The notes below the pieces were generated by a model. That model worked only from the letters and a program-made list of their open reading frames with translations. It made no database searches and was not told the origin of the DNA. This document shows, piece by piece, positions 3,172 to 64,000 of a stretch of 64,000 bases of DNA. Source of the stretch: Halococcus qingdaonensis (GTDB lineage Archaea; Halobacteriota; Halobacteria; Halobacteriales; Halococcaceae); the NCBI RefSeq assembly GCF_024508235.1, contig NZ_CP101943.1, forward strand, positions 1,709,112 through 1,773,111. The letters run 5' to 3'. A program made the position numbers and the translations under genes. Positions within the stretch are counted from its first letter, which is position 1, and each line of letters begins with the position of its first letter.

Positions 3172-4769
3172 CGCGAGGGCTCCGGCGTCATCGACGGCCG
3201 TTCGATGCGTTCGAGCGCGGCGAGCACGCCCTCGATCTTCTGCTCGGTCTCGTCGTACTCGCTCGCCGGCTCCGAATCGGCGACGACGCCCGCGCCCGCA
3301 CGCACGGTGATCCGATCTTCACCCACCCCACCGACCGCCGACGGCTCCGTGGCGTGCTCGATCAGCGCCGTCCGGATCGTGATGGCGATGTCGGCGTCGC
3401 CGTCCCACGAGAAGTAGCCGACACCGCCGCCGTACAGCCCCCGCGGGGAGGCTTCGAGCTCGTCGATGAGCTCCATCGCACGGACCTTCGGCGCACCCGA
3501 GAGCGTGCCCATCGGGAAGGCCGCGCGCACCGCGTCGAACGCGTCGTTTGCCTCCGTCATCTTCCCTGTGACCGTCGATTCGATATGCTGGACGTGGGAG
3601 TATTTCAGCACGGTCATGAACTCCGCGACTCGCACGGAGCCGGGCTGACTCACCCGGCGCACGTCGTTGCGCGCCAGATCGACGAGCATCGTGTGCTCGG
3701 CGCGCTCCTTCTCGTCGGCGAGCAGTTCGCCCGCGAGCCGGCGGTCCTCGACCGGGCTCGATCCCCGGGGACAGGTGCCCGCCAGCGGGTTCGAGACGAC
3801 CTCGTCCCCGCGGATGGAGACCAGCGTTTCGGGGCTCGCACCCACCACCGAGCGATCGCCGTATTCGAGCAGATACATGTACGGCGAGGGGTTGATCTCG
3901 CGCAGGGCGGCGTACAGCCCGCGTGGGTCGATCTCGCCAACCAGTTCGCGGGCGCGCGAGAGCACCACTTGGTAGCTGTCGCCATCGAGGACGTGTTCCT
4001 TCGCCCGCCGAACGGACTCCTCGTACTCTTCGCGCGAGCCAGCAGTCTCCCCACGGCGCTCGAACCCGCCCACATCGACCGTCGCAGCGGTGAGTTCCTC
4101 GTGGACGCGTGCGACCTCGGCGGCCATCGCGTCGTGGATGGCGGCCGGATCGTCGTCGGGGCGGACGAGCGGTGTGAACACGAGCGAGACTTCCCCGGAT
4201 GCGTGATCGAACGCCACGGTTTTCGTGGTCAGGACGAACTGCGCGTCGGGCACCGACGAATCGGGCCGATCGATCCCGACCTCGTCGAGTTGTAGATCGT
4301 AAACCGAATCGTAGGCCAGATAGCCGACGAGTCCACCGTCGAGCTGCTGGCGATCGGTGTCGGGGAAGTTCACCCGGTCGGCGTCGGGCAGCGCGCCGCG
4401 AAGCCGGTCGAGGACGTCGCCTCCGTCGCTATCGAACGCGCCCCGATATCGCTCGGTGAAACACTCGATCTCAGTGCCGTCCGGGCCAACGGTGACGAGT
4501 GCCGCCGGATCGTAGCCGACGAACGAGTAGCGCGCGTGGCCGTCGGCTTCGGTGGGCGCGAACGCCCCGTCGGGGTCGCTGGAGGCGACCTTCTCGGCGC
4601 TTTCGAGCAGGAATGTGTGGTCAGTATCGTCGGCGAGCGTCGCGTACGCCGCGAGCGGTTCGCTGTCGACGTCGAGCCGGGCGACCGCGCGTACGACCGC
4701 CGGACGATCTCGATCGCTCGCCAGATCGACGAATCGCTCGCGACCCGGCGACAGAGCGGCGTCACTCAT
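3168..4769 (-). CDS. trpE: Anthranilate synthase component I
   Basis: 533 residues. It converts chorismate plus ammonia to anthranilate, the first committed step to tryptophan, as a complex with TrpG. The chorismate-binding signature is present in the C-terminal half: LSRARELVGEI, YMYLLEYGDRSVVGASPE, NPLAGTCPRG, HTMLVDLARNDV and FPMGTLSGAPKVRAMELI. GLYGGGVGYFSWDGDAD precedes the C-terminus. The N-terminal region contains the ESAEK feedback-type element (LLESAEKV). Four-bp overlaps with trpF upstream and trpG downstream show a tight operon. Confidence 0.94.
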   Translation of the reverse strand: MSDAALSPGRERFVDLASDRDRPAVVRAVARLDVDSEPLAAYATLADDTDHTFLLESAEKVASSDPDGAFAPTEADGHARYSFVGYDPAALVTVGPDGTEIECFTERYRGAFDSDGGDVLDRLRGALPDADRVNFPDTDRQQLDGGLVGYLAYDSVYDLQLDEVGIDRPDSSVPDAQFVLTTKTVAFDHASGEVSLVFTPLVRPDDDPAAIHDAMAAEVARVHEELTAATVDVGGFERRGETAGSREEYEESVRRAKEHVLDGDSYQVVLSRARELVGEIDPRGLYAALREINPSPYMYLLEYGDRSVVGASPETLVSIRGDEVVSNPLAGTCPRGSSPVEDRRLAGELLADEKERAEHTMLVDLARNDVRRVSQPGSVRVAEFMTVLKYSHVQHIESTVTGKMTEANDAFDAVRAAFPMGTLSGAPKVRAMELIDELEASPRGLYGGGVGYFSWDGDADIAITIRTALIEHATEPSAVGGVGEDRITVRAGAGVVADSEPASEYDETEQKIEGVLAALERIERPSMTPEPSR

Positions 4770-5410
4770 ACGCGCAGCGGCTCCCCGCGGACACGCGCGA
4801 CGAATCTCTGGAGCTTCGCGTGGTCTTTGGTGCCCATACCCTGCTGGTCCTCGATCCCGCTCGATACGTCCACGCCGAACGGTGCGACCGTCTCGACCGC
4901 GCTGGCGACGTTCTCGGGCGTGAGGCCGCCGGCGAGCAGGACGGGAGCGTCGAGATTCGCGACGATCTCCCGGGCACGTGCCCAGTCGTGCGTCTCACCG
5001 GTACCACCTGCACCCTGCTCGTCGGTCGAATCGAGCACGAGCGCGTCCGCGACGGTCGCGTACTCCTCGAGACCGTCGTCGGCCGCATCGACACCGGCGA
5101 TCATCGGGACCGCGATGCGTGCCGAGAGATCCTCGATCTCGGCCGGCGAGCAGCCGTGGACCTGGATCGCATCGGGCGCGACTCGCTCGACGAGCGCCGC
5201 GCCCTCGTCCGGCGTTTCGGGCATCGTGACGAGCACGCTCGTGACCGACTCGGGAACCCGATCGACGAGCGCGGCGGCGCGATCGGGCGCGAGTTCGCGC
5301 GGCGTCTCGATCGGGACTCGCGAGATGACCCCGACCATGTCCGCGCCGGCGTCGATGGCGACGTCGAGATCGCGCTCGCGTGTCAGCCCGCAAAGTTTCG
5401 TACGAGTCAT
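4766..5410 (-). CDS. trpF: Phosphoribosylanthranilate isomerase
   Basis: 214 residues, the usual length for TrpF. It isomerises N-(5-phosphoribosyl)anthranilate to the carboxyphenylamino-deoxyribulose phosphate. The catalytic Cys lies in TKLCGLTRERDL at the N-terminus, the opposite acid is in VLDSTDEQG, and the phosphate-binding strand LAGGLTPENV is near residue 165, followed by GVDVSSGIE. It overlaps trpD and trpE by 4 bp each, which places it second in the operon. TrpC is not in the window and must be encoded elsewhere. Confidence 0.93.
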   Translation of the reverse strand: MTRTKLCGLTRERDLDVAIDAGADMVGVISRVPIETPRELAPDRAAALVDRVPESVTSVLVTMPETPDEGAALVERVAPDAIQVHGCSPAEIEDLSARIAVPMIAGVDAADDGLEEYATVADALVLDSTDEQGAGGTGETHDWARAREIVANLDAPVLLAGGLTPENVASAVETVAPFGVDVSSGIEDQQGMGTKDHAKLQRFVARVRGEPLRV

Positions 5411-6633: not shown

Positions 6634-6864
6634 CTATTTTCCCGCGAACATCTCGATGAACGATTTCTGGATAGATAGCTTCCTGATGAGTTCGAATTCC
6701 TCGATGTGTTCCACGAACCCGACCATGAAGTTCGACGAGATATCGCTGTGCGAGCGTTGCGGCGGTGTAGTGCTTGACGCCCAATCCAGACAGGCGCGAC
6801 CACACCTCGAAATGTAACGTTCGACCGTCCAAAACGATAAGCCCGTTTGGAACGAGTGGAGACC

Positions 6865-8016
6865 ATGCAAGAAGCGTACATCGTCGACGCAGTGCGGACC
6901 CCGTTCGGCAAGCACGGTGGCTCGTTTCGAGACACCCATCCACAGGACCTCGCGGCGATACCGCTGGAACGGCTCGAAGAGCGCAACGGGTTCTCCGGAC
7001 CCGACGACATCGAGGACGTGATCTACGGCTGTGTGGACCCGGTGGACGAACAGGCCAACAACATCGCACGGATCGCCCCGATGGTGGCCGGTTGGGGCGA
7101 CGACGTGCCGGGTGTGCAGCTCGACCGGATGTGCGGGTCGGGCCAGCAGTCGATCAACTTCGCGGCGGGCCAGATCCGTGCGGGCTTCCACGACGTTCTC
7201 GTCGCAGGCGGTGTCGAGCACATGACCCGGGTTCCGATGGGTTCGGCCGGTAGCAGTCTCACCGACAGCTACTTCGAGCATTTCGACGAGCTCACCACCC
7301 AGGGCGAGGGTGCCGAACGGATCGCCGAGGAGTGGGGGTTCTCCCGAAACGATCTCGACGGGATCGCCGTCGATTCGCAGAACCGCTGGGCCGACGCCGC
7401 GGCTGCCGGCCACTACGACGACCAGGTAGTGCCCGTCGAGGTGGGACCCGACGGGGAAACGACCCACGTCGAGACGGACGAACACCCGCGTCCTGGGACG
7501 GACATCGAGACGCTCGGCGATCTCCCGCTGGCGTTTCGCGAGGAGGGTGAGGGAGTGATCCACGCCGGCAACTCCTCGGGGATCGTCGATGGTGCGGCGG
7601 CGACGTTGGTCGCAAGCGGCGAGGCGTGCGAGCGGTTCGGCTGGGAGCCGATGGCCAGAATCGTCGACAGCCACGTCGTCGGCGTCGATCCCGTGACGAT
7701 GCTCACGGGACCGATCCCGGCCACGAACGAACTGCTCGACGCGAACGACATGGCGGTGTCCGACATCGACCGCTTCGAGGTCAACGAGGCGTTCGCGTCG
7801 GTCGTCGCGGCGTGGCTCGACGAGACGGGTGCCGACTGGAACCGGACGAACGTCTGGGGCGGCGCGATCGCCCACGGCCATCCGCTCGGCGCGACCGGTG
7901 CGGCACTCCTCGGCAAACTGCCCTACCAGCTCGACGCGTGTGACGGCCGGTACGGACTGTGTACGATGTGTATCGGCTTCGGCCAGGGGATCGCCACGCT
8001 AATCGAACGGGTCTGA
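6865..8016 (+). CDS. Thiolase family acetyl-CoA acetyltransferase
   Basis: 383 residues. It catalyses thiolytic cleavage of 3-ketoacyl-CoA or the reverse condensation of two acetyl-CoA. The nucleophilic Cys90 sits in DRMCGSGQQSINFA; later motifs are NEAFASVVAAWL, the His loop GGAIAHGHPLGATG and the second active cysteine in CTMCIGFGQG close to the C-terminus. The start is placed at MQEAYIVDAVRTPFG, where thiolases begin; an in-frame ATG 18 bp upstream is less likely. It is convergent with an acyl-CoA dehydrogenase, suggesting a beta-oxidation or butyryl-CoA type context. Direction of reaction and chain length cannot be read from sequence. Confidence 0.92.
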   Translation: MQEAYIVDAVRTPFGKHGGSFRDTHPQDLAAIPLERLEERNGFSGPDDIEDVIYGCVDPVDEQANNIARIAPMVAGWGDDVPGVQLDRMCGSGQQSINFAAGQIRAGFHDVLVAGGVEHMTRVPMGSAGSSLTDSYFEHFDELTTQGEGAERIAEEWGFSRNDLDGIAVDSQNRWADAAAAGHYDDQVVPVEVGPDGETTHVETDEHPRPGTDIETLGDLPLAFREEGEGVIHAGNSSGIVDGAAATLVASGEACERFGWEPMARIVDSHVVGVDPVTMLTGPIPATNELLDANDMAVSDIDRFEVNEAFASVVAAWLDETGADWNRTNVWGGAIAHGHPLGATGAALLGKLPYQLDACDGRYGLCTMCIGFGQGIATLIERV

Positions 8017-58286: not shown

Positions 58287-60359
58287 TTACACGGATTCGA
58301 CGTCAATGCTCCGGCTCCAGTTCAGTTTCTCTCGTACTATCACAGGAATGTCTTCGAGCGACAGAAATTCGACGAGTTCTTCTTCGGAAACGTCGAAAGA
58401 CCCCACGTCACCGGACGAAATATAATGATCCGTGTTGTCACCGATTTCCGGTCGGACAGCGGTTCCAATACCGTCCCAGGATGTGAGAAACGTCTTGTAT
58501 GTTGCCTCGAATGAGTCATCATCTCGCTCGATTTCACACAGATTGGGCTGTAGATGAGCAGCCTGCGCGATCGCTATCTCGCCATCCCCTACAACGAGAT
58601 ATTCGCCACCCATGATGCTCTCGCTACGTGCGATTTCGAGCGCAGAACCAAGTGGAAACCCGGTGTTGAGCAGGCGCGCGAGCGCCGTACCCATCTTAAC
58701 ACCCTCGCTGTTCAAAATGTCCGAGAGGGTGACGATCCCGCCGATGGCCCCGCCCTCGATCAGCGCCATCCCCTGACGATATGACTGGCAAGCATTGAGC
58801 AGGAAGGCGTCCACACCGACCGAGTCGAGCTGCCGGGCGTCGAGACGGCCGTCCGCACACGCGAACCCCTCGTCGTCGACGTGGCCGATGTAGTGCAGGA
58901 AATCCGTCCGGGCGGCGAGCACGTCCGCCAGCTCGTCGGTGGTGAGATCGTGGGCGACGGTCACGTCGAAGGGCAGGTCCGCGCGCTCGCCGTAGCTCGC
59001 CTCGACGGCGCGTTCGTCAGCCATCGCCGCATCGTTGCAGACGACCGTGATCTCGATGTCACCCTCGGCGGGTGTGCGCTCCAACCGATTGTGATAGGCC
59101 GCCAGCGACGCCTTGCTCGCCCCCAGTGGCGTCCCCTCACCGATCCACGTCTGCTCCAGCGAATCGGCCGGCTCGGGTCGCACGAACGGCTCCTCGATAT
59201 CGATGTCGGCCGGCTCGTCGAGGAACTGACCGCCCTCGTCGGTCGCTCTCTCGACAGCGGACGCCATCTCCCCCGGGCCGGTCGCCGGAGTCAGCGACCG
59301 AACGACGGCGAGGTCGGCGACGACGAACGACAGGTGCTCGATGCTGTCGGCCGTCGCCGCGACGTTCGCGGTGAGCTTCCAGGTCGGCACGTGCTCGGCG
59401 ATCGTCCGGTAGGGGATCGAGAGATACGTTTCGAGCTGGGCCGCCAGCGGTTGCTCGTAGAGCGTCGGGAAATCGAGTCCTAGCTTGCCCTCCAGCACCC
59501 GTCGTTCGTGAAGATCGACCGGATACAGCCCCTCGGTCCGAGTGAGACAGTCCATGAAGAACGCTTGTTTGAGCGTCCGTGCGACCGTTCGCTCGAACCC
59601 CTGCGGGCCGGCGAGCGACTGCTCGAACCCGCGATCAGTCCGTAACAGCGGTTCGATACCTGGCTCGATCGTCGCACCCAGATAGTACGAAAGCGGCGCG
59701 GCCACGTATATCGATTCGTACTCCGGCGGCACCTCGATGGTCACACCCGTCTCGGGCGGTTCCAGCCCCGCCAGCTCCAAGGAGTCTGCCAACTCGATTG
59801 TTGGCGGATGACCACGAAGGGTCGGATACGACCGCTCGGGCGTCGTCGTCTTCAGTGCCGACCCGAGCGTCGAGATCGCCTCCATCATCGCCTCGGGCTC
59901 AGCGGGCGTCCGCACCGTCGCCGCCGGCTGCTCGTGGTGTGAACGTGCGCCGACCAGCACCTCGCGCTCGCCGCCGAACTCGATCGCCATTCCCTCGGTA
60001 TCGGCGGTAATATCGAGCGCGGCTTCCACGCGGAAATAGAGCTTCACCGGTGCGCTCACTTCGATAATGTACGCTTCGCTCGGGAGTTGCTCCTCCGCGT
60101 GATGCTCGGCGCGGGCGACGACCGTGCCCCGCTCGTCACGGACGTGGATCGAGACGACGCTCGGCAGTCCGATCCCGTCGGTCCGGATCGACACCGCGCT
60201 CTCGACCGGAAACAGAAATCGCGATGGCTCGACTGCCGTCGGCCGTGTGGGGCCCGTCGAGAGCACGTATCGATGGCGTTCTATCGGGTCGACGACCGCC
60301 AATCCGTCCTCCGTCCGCTCGAACGTGGGCCGCGTCGCCGCGCCCGATCGATCCGTCAT
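58287..60359 (-). CDS. CHAT-domain (caspase-like) protein
   Basis: 690 residues. The C-terminal half is a CHAT peptidase: His493 in FLHYIGHVDDEGFAC and Cys524 in VDAFLLNACQSYRQG form the dyad; ALIEGGAIGGIVTL follows. The N-terminal ~350 residues lack known motifs and are acidic with beta-rich segments (GLPSVVSIHVRDERGTVV). No membrane helix. CHAT proteins act in programmed cell death and type III CRISPR-linked immunity in bacteria; no CRISPR is here. Haloarchaeal relatives are of unknown function. Start ATG 60359. Confidence 0.85.
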   Translation of the reverse strand: MTDRSGAATRPTFERTEDGLAVVDPIERHRYVLSTGPTRPTAVEPSRFLFPVESAVSIRTDGIGLPSVVSIHVRDERGTVVARAEHHAEEQLPSEAYIIEVSAPVKLYFRVEAALDITADTEGMAIEFGGEREVLVGARSHHEQPAATVRTPAEPEAMMEAISTLGSALKTTTPERSYPTLRGHPPTIELADSLELAGLEPPETGVTIEVPPEYESIYVAAPLSYYLGATIEPGIEPLLRTDRGFEQSLAGPQGFERTVARTLKQAFFMDCLTRTEGLYPVDLHERRVLEGKLGLDFPTLYEQPLAAQLETYLSIPYRTIAEHVPTWKLTANVAATADSIEHLSFVVADLAVVRSLTPATGPGEMASAVERATDEGGQFLDEPADIDIEEPFVRPEPADSLEQTWIGEGTPLGASKASLAAYHNRLERTPAEGDIEITVVCNDAAMADERAVEASYGERADLPFDVTVAHDLTTDELADVLAARTDFLHYIGHVDDEGFACADGRLDARQLDSVGVDAFLLNACQSYRQGMALIEGGAIGGIVTLSDILNSEGVKMGTALARLLNTGFPLGSALEIARSESIMGGEYLVVGDGEIAIAQAAHLQPNLCEIERDDDSFEATYKTFLTSWDGIGTAVRPEIGDNTDHYISSGDVGSFDVSEEELVEFLSLEDIPVIVREKLNWSRSIDVESV

Positions 60360-60646: not shown

Positions 60647-60787
60647 CTATTCGAGCGACATCGCTCGGTTCTGGAAACTGCCGCCACAGGAACACGCGCC
60701 CGGATGTGTCGTTCGCTCGACGATCTTCCCACACTGGAGGCACTCGTATGTCGACTCGCGTGTGGACTCCTCGACGACATCGTACAT
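60647..60787 (-). CDS. 46-residue rubrerythrin-like zinc protein
   Basis: YECLQCGKIVERTTHPGACSCGG has two CxxC-type pairs (CLQCG, CSCGG) as in rubredoxin/rubrerythrin-like knuckles; DUF7129 type by memory. ATG at 60787 is 17 nt downstream of the palindromic promoter at 60804-60824, as expected for a leaderless transcript. Confidence 0.65.
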   Translation of the reverse strand: MYDVVEESTRESTYECLQCGKIVERTTHPGACSCGGSFQNRAMSLE

Positions 60788-60922: not shown

Positions 60923-61735
60923 TTACTCGTTCTCACCGACGGTCATGCCCGGGTGGAGCCGGGCGAGATCAGGGTGTTCGCCCAGTGGGATCGCGGCATC
61001 GCGGTAGTCGTCGTAGACCGCCTCGGCCCACTCGCGGGCAGCGGGCGCGTCGGTATCGGCGTACGTTCGCAACAGCCCGGTGTCGTCGTCGTAGCTACCC
61101 ACACCGACGCGCTCGGCACAGAGCGTCAGTCCGAACGGCAGATCGTCGTGGACAAGGATCGAGAAGTTGCCGCTGGCGAACGTCCGCTCGGCGCGCTCGG
61201 GGTTCGTTTCGAGCAGCTCCGCGACGACGCTCGTCGGGAAGACGACTTCGGTCGTCATCCCGCCGACGATGCGCTCGTGGAGAGCGTCGATATGCAGCGG
61301 GTTGATGATCGCCGGATCGAGCCCGCGGAGTTCGTCGGTCGCGTCGACGAGCGTCATGAACCGCTCGACCGGCCGGTACGGGTTGCCGGGCGCGGCGGTC
61401 GTCACGGTCGCGTCGGCGAACGCCGCCGCGTCGAAGGCGACGTCGTGGGCGTCGGCGGCGGCCAGCACTGGCGCGAGCTCCCACGCCGTCTCGACGGTTG
61501 CCGTGAACGACGCGACCTCGCGGGCGCACGCCCGTCCCAGCGGCGTGAGCACGAACGCACCCGCCTCGCGCTCGATGAGACCGTGCTCGCGGAGCGAGCG
61601 CGTGAGACGGTGGACCGTCGATTTCGAGACCTCGAGCTCCGCTTCGAGGTCGCGCCGATCCATCGATTCGGCGTCCTGCAACGCCGCGAGCACCGGCGCA
61701 CGCCTGATCAGTTCGACGAGGCGCTCGGTGTCCAT
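60923..61735 (-). CDS. FilR1-like winged-helix transcriptional regulator
   Basis: 270 residues. N-terminal wHTH: LIRRAPVLAALQDAESMDRRDLEAELEVSKSTVHRLTRSLREHGLIEREAGAFVLTPLGRACA. The C-terminal part resembles the DUF1724/FilR1 sensor, e.g. PERAERTFASGNFSILVHDDLPFGLTL. It is likely a repressor with a small-molecule or signal-binding domain. An inverted repeat sits between its TATA box and start codon. Confidence 0.82.
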   Translation of the reverse strand: MDTERLVELIRRAPVLAALQDAESMDRRDLEAELEVSKSTVHRLTRSLREHGLIEREAGAFVLTPLGRACAREVASFTATVETAWELAPVLAAADAHDVAFDAAAFADATVTTAAPGNPYRPVERFMTLVDATDELRGLDPAIINPLHIDALHERIVGGMTTEVVFPTSVVAELLETNPERAERTFASGNFSILVHDDLPFGLTLCAERVGVGSYDDDTGLLRTYADTDAPAAREWAEAVYDDYRDAAIPLGEHPDLARLHPGMTVGENE

Positions 61736-61771: not shown

Positions 61772-61831
61772 TATCTCCGGAAGTGGGCCGATCGAACCGC
61801 TCTCCCCAGACTGCCGACGCGAAAGGAAGAT

Positions 61832-61847
61832 TTGGCGTGCGCCAAAC
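61832..61847. promoter_or_regulatory. Perfect palindrome TTTGGCGTGCGCCAAA
   Basis: 7+2+7 perfect dyad 98 bp upstream of the small YeiH partner gene and overlapping a possible TATA (AGATTTGGCG). Probably the operator for the exporter operon. Confidence 0.55.
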
Positions 61848-61944
61848 GAAGGGCTATGATTGCCATCGCCGGACGGACAAGCAAGATGCGACGTATCGAT
61901 CGAACGCGTCGAAACGGGATCGACCGCGACGAACGGGGAAGCCG

Positions 61945-62106
61945 ATGAGCAACGAACAGCAGAGCGGCGGCACGGTGGGTGGCGAATCGAGCGCGGCGAG
62001 GACGCTGGCCAGCTACTGGACGGAGCTCCCGCACGACTGGCAGGCGGTGGTGCTCGGCGCGCTCGTCCTGGTGATCGTCGCCAGCGGTGTGCAGATCCCG
62101 TGGTGA
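61945..62106 (+). CDS. 53-residue membrane partner of the YeiH-type exporter
   Basis: SNEQQSGGTVGGESSAARTL, then TELPHDWQAVVLGALVLVIVASGVQIPW with one membrane helix. Stop overlaps the GTG start of the exporter (GTGA), implying coupled translation. A tiny haloarchaeal companion protein of YeiH-family transporters. Confidence 0.68.
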   Translation: MSNEQQSGGTVGGESSAARTLASYWTELPHDWQAVVLGALVLVIVASGVQIPW

Positions 62107-63104
62107 ACGTCCGCGAGTCGGTGCTGCCGGGCATCGGCGTGCTCGTCGTCATCGGGCTGGCCGCGCGGGCGCTCGCAACGGTCGTTCCGACGAGCCACCT
62201 GATCCTCGCCATCGTCATCGGGCTGATCGTCGGCAACCTCTACGGCGTCCCCGACTGGGCGAGCGCCGGCATCGGGACGAACAAACTCTGGCTCGAAGGC
62301 GGGATCGTCCTGATGGGCGCGAGCGTCGCTCTCGATCGCGTGGTCGACGCCGGCCCGACGATCCTAATTCTCGTGATCGCCACGGTGATGACGACGATCC
62401 TCACCGTCGAGGCGCTCGCACGCGGCGCGTTCGGCATCCGCGGGAAGATCGGCTCGCTGCTCGCCGCTGGGTCGAGCATCTGTGGCGTCTCGGCGGTCGT
62501 CGCGACGGCCGGCAGCATCGAGGCCGACGAGGACCAGATCGCCTACGCGGCCGCCACAGTGTTGTTGTTCGATGCCGTGACGCTGCTCGCCTATCCGGCG
62601 CTCGGCCATCTCTTCGGGCTCACGGACAAGGTCTTCGGCATCTGGGCAGGGCTGACGATGTTCAGCACCGGCCCCGTGACCGCCGCCGGCTTCGCCTTCT
62701 CGCAGGCGGCCGGCCAGTGGGCACTGCTGGTCAAGCTCACGCGCAACGCGCTCATCGGCCTCGCGGCCATCGCCTACGCGCTCTACTACATCCGCCGCTC
62801 CGGCGGGGAGCGCAACGACGCCGTTCCCGGTGGCATCGGCTACCTCTGGCACTCGTTTCCCAAGTTCGTGCTCGGTTTTCTGGGGCTGATGCTGGTCGCG
62901 AACACCGGCGTGCTCGGCGGGGCCCAGCTCGCCTCGCTCGAACACGCCGCCGACTGGCTGTTCCTGTTCGCCTTCGCCGGCCTCGGGCTCGACATCCGCC
63001 TCGACGAACTCCGCTCGACGGGGATCAAGCCCGTTCTCGTCGTGCTCGTGAGCCTCATCTGCGTGAGCACGGTCTGTCTGTTCGTCCTCACGACGCTGTT
63101 CTGA
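62103..63104 (+). CDS. YeiH family putative sulfate/sulfite exporter
   Basis: 333 residues, about ten membrane segments. Conserved family features: HLILAIVIGLIVGNLYGVP, LWLEGGIVLMGASVAL, SICGVSAVVATAGSIEADEDQIAYA and TGLSTG-like GLTMFSTGPVTAAGF. GTG start overlapping the small upstream gene. Homologues are proposed sulfate exporters (UPF0324), evidence in archaea thin. Regulated perhaps by the divergent FilR1-like protein. Confidence 0.87.
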   Translation: MNVRESVLPGIGVLVVIGLAARALATVVPTSHLILAIVIGLIVGNLYGVPDWASAGIGTNKLWLEGGIVLMGASVALDRVVDAGPTILILVIATVMTTILTVEALARGAFGIRGKIGSLLAAGSSICGVSAVVATAGSIEADEDQIAYAAATVLLFDAVTLLAYPALGHLFGLTDKVFGIWAGLTMFSTGPVTAAGFAFSQAAGQWALLVKLTRNALIGLAAIAYALYYIRRSGGERNDAVPGGIGYLWHSFPKFVLGFLGLMLVANTGVLGGAQLASLEHAADWLFLFAFAGLGLDIRLDELRSTGIKPVLVVLVSLICVSTVCLFVLTTLF

Positions 63105-63154
63105 CGGCTCCGGAAACGGCATGTTCTTTTCGCGCGCGCCGAACGGACGGATGG

Positions 63155-63892
63155 ATGCGGGAGTTCACGTTCACCATCGAGTACGAGCGCGGGACCGACC
63201 CCATCATGGACGCCTTCATCGACGATCCCGACGCGGTGGCGCGCTCGCTCGACGGCTTCGTGACCGAGGAGCGGTTCTGGCGCATCGAGCGTATCGCCGG
63301 CTCGCCGGCGACGCTCGACCGCATCGAGGAGATCCGCTTCGACGACGACACCTGCGGCGAGTCGCTCACCGAACGCGACTGCGAGGCGACGCGCTATCAC
63401 GACGTGCTCGAACGCGGCGAGAACCGGCTCGTCGTCTACACCTATCTCGACGGGATCAGCGCCTGCGAGTCCGTCCACACTCTCTCGGGAAAACACCTCC
63501 CGCCCGGGCTCGTCTTCGAAACCCTCCGAAGCGAGAACCGCCACTCCTGGCGCGTGCTGATGCGCTCGGACGCGAAGGTGGGCGTGCTCTACGACGAACT
63601 CGCCGCCCGGCTGCGCGACGGGCTCTCCTTCCGGATGGGCCATCTCCGCGACGCCGACGGCTGGCAGCGCGACTCGCTGGCGTCGGTCTCGGTAGCGGCC
63701 GAACAGCGCGCGGCGCTTCAGGCGGCCGTCGAGGACGGCTACTACGAAACCCCACGAGAGACGACGCTCGACGAGCTCGCCGACGAGCTCGATGTCCCTC
63801 GCTCGACGCTTTCCTATCGTCTCCGACAGGCCGAGAGCCAGCTCGCCCGGCGCTACGTCGCCGACGACGAGCGCGATCGGTGGCTTCGATAG
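63155..63892 (+). CDS. Bat-type HTH-10 transcriptional regulator
   Basis: 245 residues. HTH-10 at the C-terminus: AALQAAVEDGYYETPRETTLDELADELDVPRSTLSYRLRQAESQL. N-terminal sensor-like region MREFTFTIEYERGTDPIMDAF. Target unknown; it lies 50 bp after the exporter on the same strand. Confidence 0.85.
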   Translation: MREFTFTIEYERGTDPIMDAFIDDPDAVARSLDGFVTEERFWRIERIAGSPATLDRIEEIRFDDDTCGESLTERDCEATRYHDVLERGENRLVVYTYLDGISACESVHTLSGKHLPPGLVFETLRSENRHSWRVLMRSDAKVGVLYDELAARLRDGLSFRMGHLRDADGWQRDSLASVSVAAEQRAALQAAVEDGYYETPRETTLDELADELDVPRSTLSYRLRQAESQLARRYVADDERDRWLR

Positions 63893-63981: not shown

Positions 63982-64000
63982 ATGACCGACCACGCGACGG
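63982..64000 (+). CDS. Start of an unidentified gene (cut by window end)
   Basis: ATG at 63982 reads MTDHAT and runs off the window. GTTTAATACC about 27 nt upstream is a good TATA box, which supports a real gene start; the product cannot be named. Confidence 0.4.

What the first reader, a model, noticed from the sequence alone, without database searches (positions are those of the whole stretch)
61832..61847. Perfect 16-bp palindrome TTTGGCGTGCGCCAAA before the exporter operon
A 7+2+7 dyad overlapping a TATA-like element is a strong operator candidate. The divergent FilR1-like gene or the downstream Bat-type gene may encode the protein that binds it.
Basis: partly seen in the sequence, partly recalled or inferred. 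Interest (0 to 1): 0.5.

Follow-up and report, generated by a model that had tools for sequence, protein, structure and literature searches.

The report
Operator of a haloarchaeal sulfur regulon
The small DNA palindrome belongs to a conserved family of sites that goes together with one regulator gene in salt-loving archaea and stands before genes for handling reactive sulfur compounds, which makes a so far undescribed sulfur response testable.

Summary
The dyad is real but lies at 61831-61846 (one base left of the stated place) and is 7+2+7 with a non-complementary TG centre. Alone it is near chance. Footprinting makes it convincing: a dyad TTGKCG-NN-CGMCAA stands before yeiH in 9 of 9 Halococcus genomes that have the gene (single in 4, two copies 16 bp apart in 5) and in 0 of 21 fetched yeiH loci of other genera without the regulator. 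It follows the Bat-type (HVO_2928_N + HTH_10) gene: 38 of 54 exact copies in 29 genomes lie within 6 kb of it, 0.17 expected, also where yeiH is absent. Other genes behind such sites code for SQR-like, MBL-rhodanese, SBP56, oxidase and rhodanese proteins. Best reading: the HTH_10 protein binds the dyad, activates these genes from about -47 and represses its own gene from about -20. FilR1 is not the general partner (4 of 40 loci). Binding, sign of regulation and ligand are inferred. Nine literature searches listed no description of this regulon.

The parts
61831..61846 (.). Dyad TTTGGCG-TG-CGCCAAA, operator before the yeiH operon (14-bp core 61832-61845)
   Evidence: conserved in 9 of 9 Halococcus yeiH loci
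61855..61862 (+). Weak TATA-like element TATGATTG, 9 nt after the dyad core
   Evidence: TAT or CAT begins 8 or 9 nt after the dyad in 19 of 22 target promoters that I measured; function inferred
61886..61948 (+). 20-codon ORF whose ATG lies 40 nt after the dyad, the usual start-codon distance of this promoter class; overlaps the start of the next ORF
   Evidence: coding status not shown
61945..62106 (+). 53-aa microprotein with a C-terminal hydrophobic stretch, first long ORF of the operon
   Evidence: No Pfam or NCBIfam match; tblastn matches next to yeiH in other loci
62103..63104 (+). YeiH-family transporter
   Evidence: PF03601 E 1.6e-62; TIGR00698 113.8 bits, below its cut-off 232.6
63128..63143 (.). 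Second, degenerate copy TTTCGCGCGCGCCGAA; its core ends 12 nt before the regulator's start codon
   Evidence: the five other-clade Halococcus loci have an exact or one-mismatch copy at this place
63155..63892 (+). HVO_2928_N + HTH_10 (Bat-type) regulator, proposed binder of the dyad
   Evidence: PF24281 E 2.5e-65, PF04967 E 1.2e-16
63982..64000 (+). Start of a two-domain rhodanese gene that runs on past the window end (L047 8094-8963)
   Evidence: PF00581, two stretches

Best explanation
The dyad is the operator of the downstream HVO_2928_N/HTH_10 (Bat-type) regulator. A dimer of that protein binds TTGKCG-NN-CGMCAA; two dimers where two copies stand 16-17 bp apart. At the yeiH operon and other target genes the site lies just upstream of a weak BRE/TATA, centred near -47 from the start codon, so the bound protein most likely helps recruit TFB/TBP and activates. 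At the regulator's own gene inside the yeiH operons a copy (degenerate in the window) is centred near -20, between the TATA region and the start, where it most likely limits its own synthesis. The target genes (YeiH, rhodanese, SQR-like, MBL-rhodanese, SBP56, oxidase) point to reactive sulfur (sulfide, persulfide, thiosulfate or sulfite) as the signal, with YeiH exporting sulfite. Shown by comparison: the site, its conservation, its link to the regulator and to those genes. Inferred: binding, sign of regulation, ligand, sulfite export in this organism.
For: Dyad before 9 of 9 Halococcus yeiH genes, 0 of 21 fetched yeiH loci of other genera without the regulator. 38 of 54 exact sites in 29 regulator-bearing genomes lie within 6 kb of the regulator, 0.17 expected; 27 of 29 genomes. 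The site persists with the regulator where yeiH is absent: 7 of 7 SBP56-type loci, 98-114 nt upstream, and two more loci without yeiH, L170 and L172. Symmetric change of arm positions 4 and 11: complementary in 41 of 59 sites, 30.4 expected if independent (sites picked by me and partly related). Fixed geometry: 37-45 nt to the start codon at 22 target promoters, 12-13 nt at 8 regulator promoters. A sulfur gene set behind the sites; rhodanese in 18 of 21 loci with yeiH and HTH_10.
Against: No binding or expression data. Two of 29 regulator-bearing genomes lack an exact nearby site (G282 has a one-mismatch site, G306 none), and G259 and G357, left out of that count, have none either. The decayed yeiH locus L132 keeps two dyads with no HTH_10 orthologue in the fetched 9 kb. 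16 of 54 exact sites lie far from the regulator. The window's own second site has two mismatches to the consensus. Cys76 and Cys104 are not specific to the sulfur clade. One paralogue group with the same dyad stands before a heavy-metal ATPase, so not every target is a sulfur gene. Autorepression and activation are read from position alone.
Confidence: 0.78

Rival explanations
1. Same site and same regulator, but the HTH_10 protein represses the operon and a sulfur compound releases it, as with BigR.
For: Conserved thiols and BigR-like enzymes in the regulon; BigR is a repressor inactivated by sulfide and polysulfide (PMC5823870, abstract). The copy at the regulator's own gene is in a repressor-like place.
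Against: At 22 measured target promoters the site is upstream of the TATA-like element rather than over it; DmsR, with a Bat-like HTH, is a positive regulator (PMC1447603, passages).
Confidence: 0.25
2. The divergent FilR1-like protein (60923-61735) binds the dyad and controls both directions.
For: The dyad lies between the two genes, about 100 nt from the FilR1 start; the arrangement is kept in 4 Halococcus loci.
Against: FilR1 matches in only 4 of 40 loci while the dyad persists in most of the rest; the dyad recurs before HTH_10 genes in other genera.
Confidence: 0.03
3. A chance palindrome, or an RNA hairpin or terminator, without a regulator.
For: Such dyads are common in this window (15 seen, 6-14 in shuffles); a terminator-like pattern is called on the minus strand.
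Against: Sequence as well as symmetry is conserved; tandem copies; fixed distance before unrelated genes; linkage to one regulator. The site precedes the predicted transcript start.
Confidence: 0.02

Closest known systems
YeiE-yeiH sulfite response (Salmonella, PMC12880088, abstract; Hyphomicrobium, PMC12423496, passages)
   Same: A yeiH-family gene next to its regulator gene; the regulator is autoregulated; YeiH gives sulfite resistance in Salmonella and is called a sulfite exporter in Hyphomicrobium.
   Different: YeiE is a LysR-type protein of bacteria; here the regulator is an HVO_2928_N/HTH_10 protein at an archaeal promoter, with rhodanese and other sulfur genes.
BigR and the related persulfide repressors CstR and SqrR
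   Same: A regulon with sulfurtransferase/dioxygenase enzymes against sulfide (BigR: PMC5823870, abstract; CstR and SqrR seen in a search listing only).
   Different: Unrelated regulator family; BigR is a repressor, here activation is proposed; thiol sensing is not shown here.
Bat and its UAS at bop; DmsR of Halobacterium
   Same: HTH_10-type (Bat-like) regulators acting from a site 5' of the promoter; DmsR is a positive regulator (PMC1447603, passages).
   Different: Different N-terminal domain (HVO_2928_N), different DNA site (the bop UAS sequence is recalled, not compared here), different targets.
SurR of Thermococcales
   Same: An archaeal regulator that responds to sulfur through cysteines (PMC7278568, passages).
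   Different: CXXC switch, elemental sulfur, hydrogen versus sulfide metabolism; no sequence relation was tested here.

Membership tests
HTH_10 (Bat-type) regulators | C-terminal HTH_10 domain | tested here: met
   PF04967 E 1.2e-16, residues 183-231
HTH_10 (Bat-type) regulators | PAS/GAF sensor domains as in Bat itself (recalled) | tested here: not met
   Pfam scan to E 0.01 gives HVO_2928_N, residues 3-170, and no PAS or GAF: an HTH_10 protein, not a Bat orthologue
YeiH transporter family | PF03601 domain | tested here: met
   E 1.6e-62
YeiH transporter family | NCBIfam TIGR00698 curated cut-off | tested here: not met
   113.8 bits against 232.6
YeiE-yeiH system | LysR-type regulator beside yeiH | tested here: not met
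   Neighbours are FilR1-like and HTH_10 proteins; works like it, is not a member
BigR/CstR/SqrR regulators | ArsR or CsoR family protein (recalled) | tested here: not met
   HVO_2928_N + HTH_10; no match to such families for the regulator in Pfam at E 0.01 or NCBIfam
Operator of the HTH_10 regulator | Phylogenetic conservation linked to the regulator | tested here: met
Operator of the HTH_10 regulator | Specific binding of the purified protein | not testable with these tools
   Needs an experiment
FilR1 operator | Co-occurrence of the dyad with the FilR1-like gene | tested here: not met
   FilR1 in 4 of 40 loci, dyad in most of the others
Reactive-sulfur regulon | Response of target genes to a sulfur compound | not testable with these tools
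   Inferred from gene content only

The most novel reading that the evidence does not exclude
The dyad defines an undescribed haloarchaeal reactive-sulfur regulon with a two-position operator code: one HTH_10 protein, sensing persulfide or sulfite through Cys67, Cys76 and Cys104, activates export and oxidation genes from about -47 and represses itself from about -20, and the operator-regulator module moves between haloarchaeal families by gene transfer. It would be a functional counterpart of YeiE and of BigR/CstR built on a different, haloarchaeal regulator family.
Probability: 0.4. Interest if true: 0.65.

Novelty: new variant of a known kind. Interest (0 to 1): 0.55.

Why it matters
HTH_10 regulators are numerous in haloarchaea and, as far as I recall, few have a known DNA site or regulon. 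This gives a concrete site, a cognate regulator and a target list that can be tested in culturable Halococcus strains. It suggests a sulfur response for haloarchaea, and ties YeiH, recently shown to protect Salmonella from sulfite, to persulfide-type enzymes in archaea.

Tried and rejected
Chance palindrome: rejected by footprinting, although the single dyad is near chance level. FilR1 as general binder: rejected (4 of 40 loci). RNA hairpin or terminator: rejected on position and sequence conservation. The sigma-70 scan gives one overlapping match but does not apply to archaeal promoters.

More regulon members in the window's own genome: none found; the only other near site looked at, TTTGGCGTGCGCTAAC (L005), was not followed. 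Of the 16 exact sites more than 6 kb from an HTH_10 orthologue, 13 were fetched and 3 read in earlier loci (G007:C5 and G007:C25, coding by eye; G098:C5:71848, before the MBL-rhodanese gene). In one search, 11 of the 13 lie inside predicted reading frames (in L200 a start codon 13 nt after the site is also possible), and 2 (L192, L193) precede a heavy-metal ATPase gene beside an HTH_10 paralogue.

Cysteines as a marker of the sulfur clade: weakened. Cys67, Cys76 and Cys104 are in 21 of 21 members, but Cys76 and Cys104 also in 22 of 25 other paralogues and Cys67 in 12 of 25; the SBP56 clade has Cys76 in 6 of 7 and the others in 0 of 7 (the truncated L041 row was dropped, the broken G001 copy was not included). 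Structure prediction: three sequences, mean pLDDT 42.2, not used. PDB sequence search: four matches to the HTH region only, E about 0.055.

Hand choices: the 59 sites and the 30 promoters were picked by me, start codons included. Not measured: yeiH promoters of L127, L132, L167, L168, L169, L171, L173, the near-copies L038-L040, and the regulator promoters of L128, L170 and L172.

Full report
OBSERVATION. TTTGGCGTGCGCCAAA lies at 61831-61846, one base left of the stated coordinates. It is a 7-2-7 inverted repeat whose TG centre is not self-complementary. The TATA-like candidate TATGATTG (61855-61862) is downstream, not overlapping. Taken alone the dyad means little: 15 dyads with 7-bp arms and 2-bp spacer occur in the window, 6-14 in five shuffled windows; a shuffled intergenic stretch has one in 2.1% of 2000 trials, and any 7-bp dyad with spacer 0-10 in 17.9%.

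SURROUNDINGS. Upstream and divergent is a FilR1_middle + HVO_A0261_N protein (60923-61735, minus). Downstream are a 53-aa microprotein (61945-62106), a PF03601 YeiH-family transporter (62103-63104), an HVO_2928_N + HTH_10 regulator (63155-63892) and, starting at 63982 and leaving the window, a two-domain rhodanese. The closest named loci are from Halococcus thailandensis and H. morrhuae, so the window's genus is taken to be Halococcus.

FOOTPRINT IN THE GENUS. Of 10 genomes of the genus searched, 9 have yeiH; the tenth is 72% complete. All 9 have the dyad upstream, each copy within one mismatch of TTGKCGNNCGMCAA. Four (G000, G001, G004, G009) have a single copy; G004 has GTTGGCG..CGCCAAC where the window has TTTGGCG..CGCCAAA, so both arms changed together. 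Five (G002, G003, G005, G007, G008) have two copies 16 bp apart; in G003 they form one 34-bp palindrome, GTTCGTCGTGCGACAAC-GTTGTCGCACGACGAAC. Between yeiH and the HTH_10 gene there is a further copy: exact or with one mismatch in those five, degenerate in the window's group (TTTCGCGCGCGCCGAA at 63128-63143 in the window, two mismatches in its core).

THE SITE FOLLOWS THE REGULATOR. At up to one mismatch in 500 nt the dyad is absent before 21 of 21 fetched yeiH loci of other genera (L017-L037); tblastn finds no orthologue of the regulator in their fetched flanks, only one partial HTH-domain match in L029. A further locus, L132 (G046), with a partial yeiH match, keeps two dyads; its fetched 9 kb shows no HTH_10 orthologue, only a partial HTH-domain match. 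Among 392 haloarchaeal genomes the regulator is found at E <= 1e-70 in 30, plus G002, whose copy is cut by a contig end. In the same 392 the tandem dyad (up to 3 mismatches) is found in 14, the backwards-read control in 7. The 11 hits with at most 2 mismatches are all at yeiH/HTH_10 loci; of three with 3 mismatches one is beside a 41% HTH_10 paralogue (G116) and two are elsewhere (G181, G198). In 29 regulator-bearing genomes there are 54 exact single sites, 38 within 6 kb of the regulator start (0.17 expected) and 34 within 1.5 kb; 27 of 29 genomes have one. The 29 leave out G259 and G357 (47-49% identity), which show no site, so the fuller count is 27 of 31; G282 has a one-mismatch site, G306 none. 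Genome-wide the exact pattern is not commoner than its backwards-read control in most of the 29 genomes; the signal is in where the sites lie. Seven regulators without yeiH have an exact site 98-114 nt upstream; in the four loci read out the site also stands 44 nt before a divergent gene, which Pfam names SBP56 in the one tested (L184). More distant paralogues (42-54% identity) show the looser dyad TTGKC-N4-GMCAA within 400 nt upstream in 7 of 22 loci, against 13 in the 80.5 kb of all those loci.

TARGET GENES. Of 21 loci with both yeiH and HTH_10, 18 have rhodanese; L041 is cut by its contig end, L167 and L171 have none. On contig C5 of G098 exact dyads precede HTH_10, a SQR-like flavoprotein, a second yeiH and a metallo-beta-lactamase-rhodanese gene; one-mismatch sites precede a COX1 gene and a rhodanese gene. 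G214 has exact dyads before COX1 and HTH_10; G203 has them before HTH_10 and before an ORF whose first residues resemble the MBL-rhodanese protein, not scanned. Names rest on Pfam; the NCBIfam models for SQR, Blh and methanethiol oxidase match below their cut-offs.

GEOMETRY. At 22 target promoters that I picked, the gap from dyad core to start codon is 37-45 nt, most often 40; at 8 regulator promoters it is 12-13 nt. TAT or CAT begins 8 or 9 nt after the dyad in 19 of the 22, 7 nt in one, and is missing in two. If transcripts start at or near the start codon, as is common in haloarchaea (recalled), the first class is centred near -47, upstream of BRE/TATA, and the second near -20. The HTH_10 promoters of L128, L170 and L172 have other distances. 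In the window the 40-nt gap leads to ATG 61886, which opens a 20-codon ORF overlapping the microprotein start.

MECHANISM. The HTH_10 protein most likely binds the dyad, activates the operon and limits its own expression. Activation rests on promoter layout and on DmsR, a positive regulator with a Bat-like HTH (PMC1447603, passages). The sulfur signal rests on the target genes and on YeiH: in Salmonella the autoregulated LysR protein YeiE controls yeiH, and YeiH is the main driver of sulfite resistance (PMC12880088, abstract); in Hyphomicrobium YeiH is called a sulfite exporter (PMC12423496, passages). BigR controls a regulon with similar enzymes (PMC5823870, abstract and section list). Cys67, Cys76 and Cys104 are in 21 of 21 regulators of this clade, but Cys76 and Cys104 also in 22 of 25 other paralogues, so they are only candidates for sensing.

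SPREAD. The regulators of this clade have a single origin on the tree, while their genomes come from five families that are mixed on it; two loci from different families are 99.97% identical over 6340 bp. Operator and regulator seem to move together, though cross-contamination of assemblies is not excluded for that pair.

PRIOR WORK. Nine full-text searches listed no paper that describes this regulon by title or abstract; HVO_2928, which names the N-terminal domain, appears in one paper, in a list of antisense transcripts (passage). Most subscription papers are outside that library.

VERDICT. The result is an operator and regulon prediction, new as far as searched, of a known general kind.

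Noticed in passing
61945-62106; matches beside yeiH in most loci: A 53-aa microprotein (W..L..DWQAV-type motif, hydrophobic C-terminal stretch, no Pfam or NCBIfam match) directly precedes yeiH; tblastn also finds it in 4 of 21 yeiH loci without the regulator, and similar short ORFs are visible by eye in more. Possibly a small subunit of the transporter.
   Followed up: partly
61886-61948: A 20-codon ORF at the expected start-codon distance from the dyad overlaps the microprotein start by ATGA; it could be a leader ORF or only mark the transcript start.
   Followed up: no
L188 5355, L192 1507, L193 1477: The same dyad stands 37 nt before a heavy-metal P-type ATPase gene beside a distant HTH_10 paralogue (41% identity for L188), so the DNA site is shared by a wider HTH_10 subfamily.
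   Followed up: partly
L176 and L177: Yeih-HTH_10-rhodanese loci of genomes from two different families are 99.97% identical over 6340 bp: recent transfer or assembly cross-contamination.
   Followed up: partly
L009 and L038 (G001), HTH_10 gene: The HTH_10 copy is interrupted by a stretch with N that reads LSLIHIS in translation, which looks like sequencing-adapter residue (recalled), an assembly artefact rather than a real break.
   Followed up: no
L132 about 3944-4860: A partial yeiH match and a microprotein-like frame with an early stop, with both dyads intact and no HTH_10 orthologue in the fetched stretch: a decaying locus.
   Followed up: partly
L128 about 6724-7371 (plus): A TFB-like protein is encoded divergently from the second HTH_10 gene of G098, with the dyad between them (read by eye).
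   Followed up: no
58287-60359 (minus): A 690-aa protein without a Pfam match at E 0.01; HVDDEG and NACQS stretches resemble a CHAT-type protease (recalled motif).
   Followed up: no
60647-60787 (minus): Small rubrerythrin-like zinc-ribbon protein (NF033497, DUF7129).
   Followed up: no
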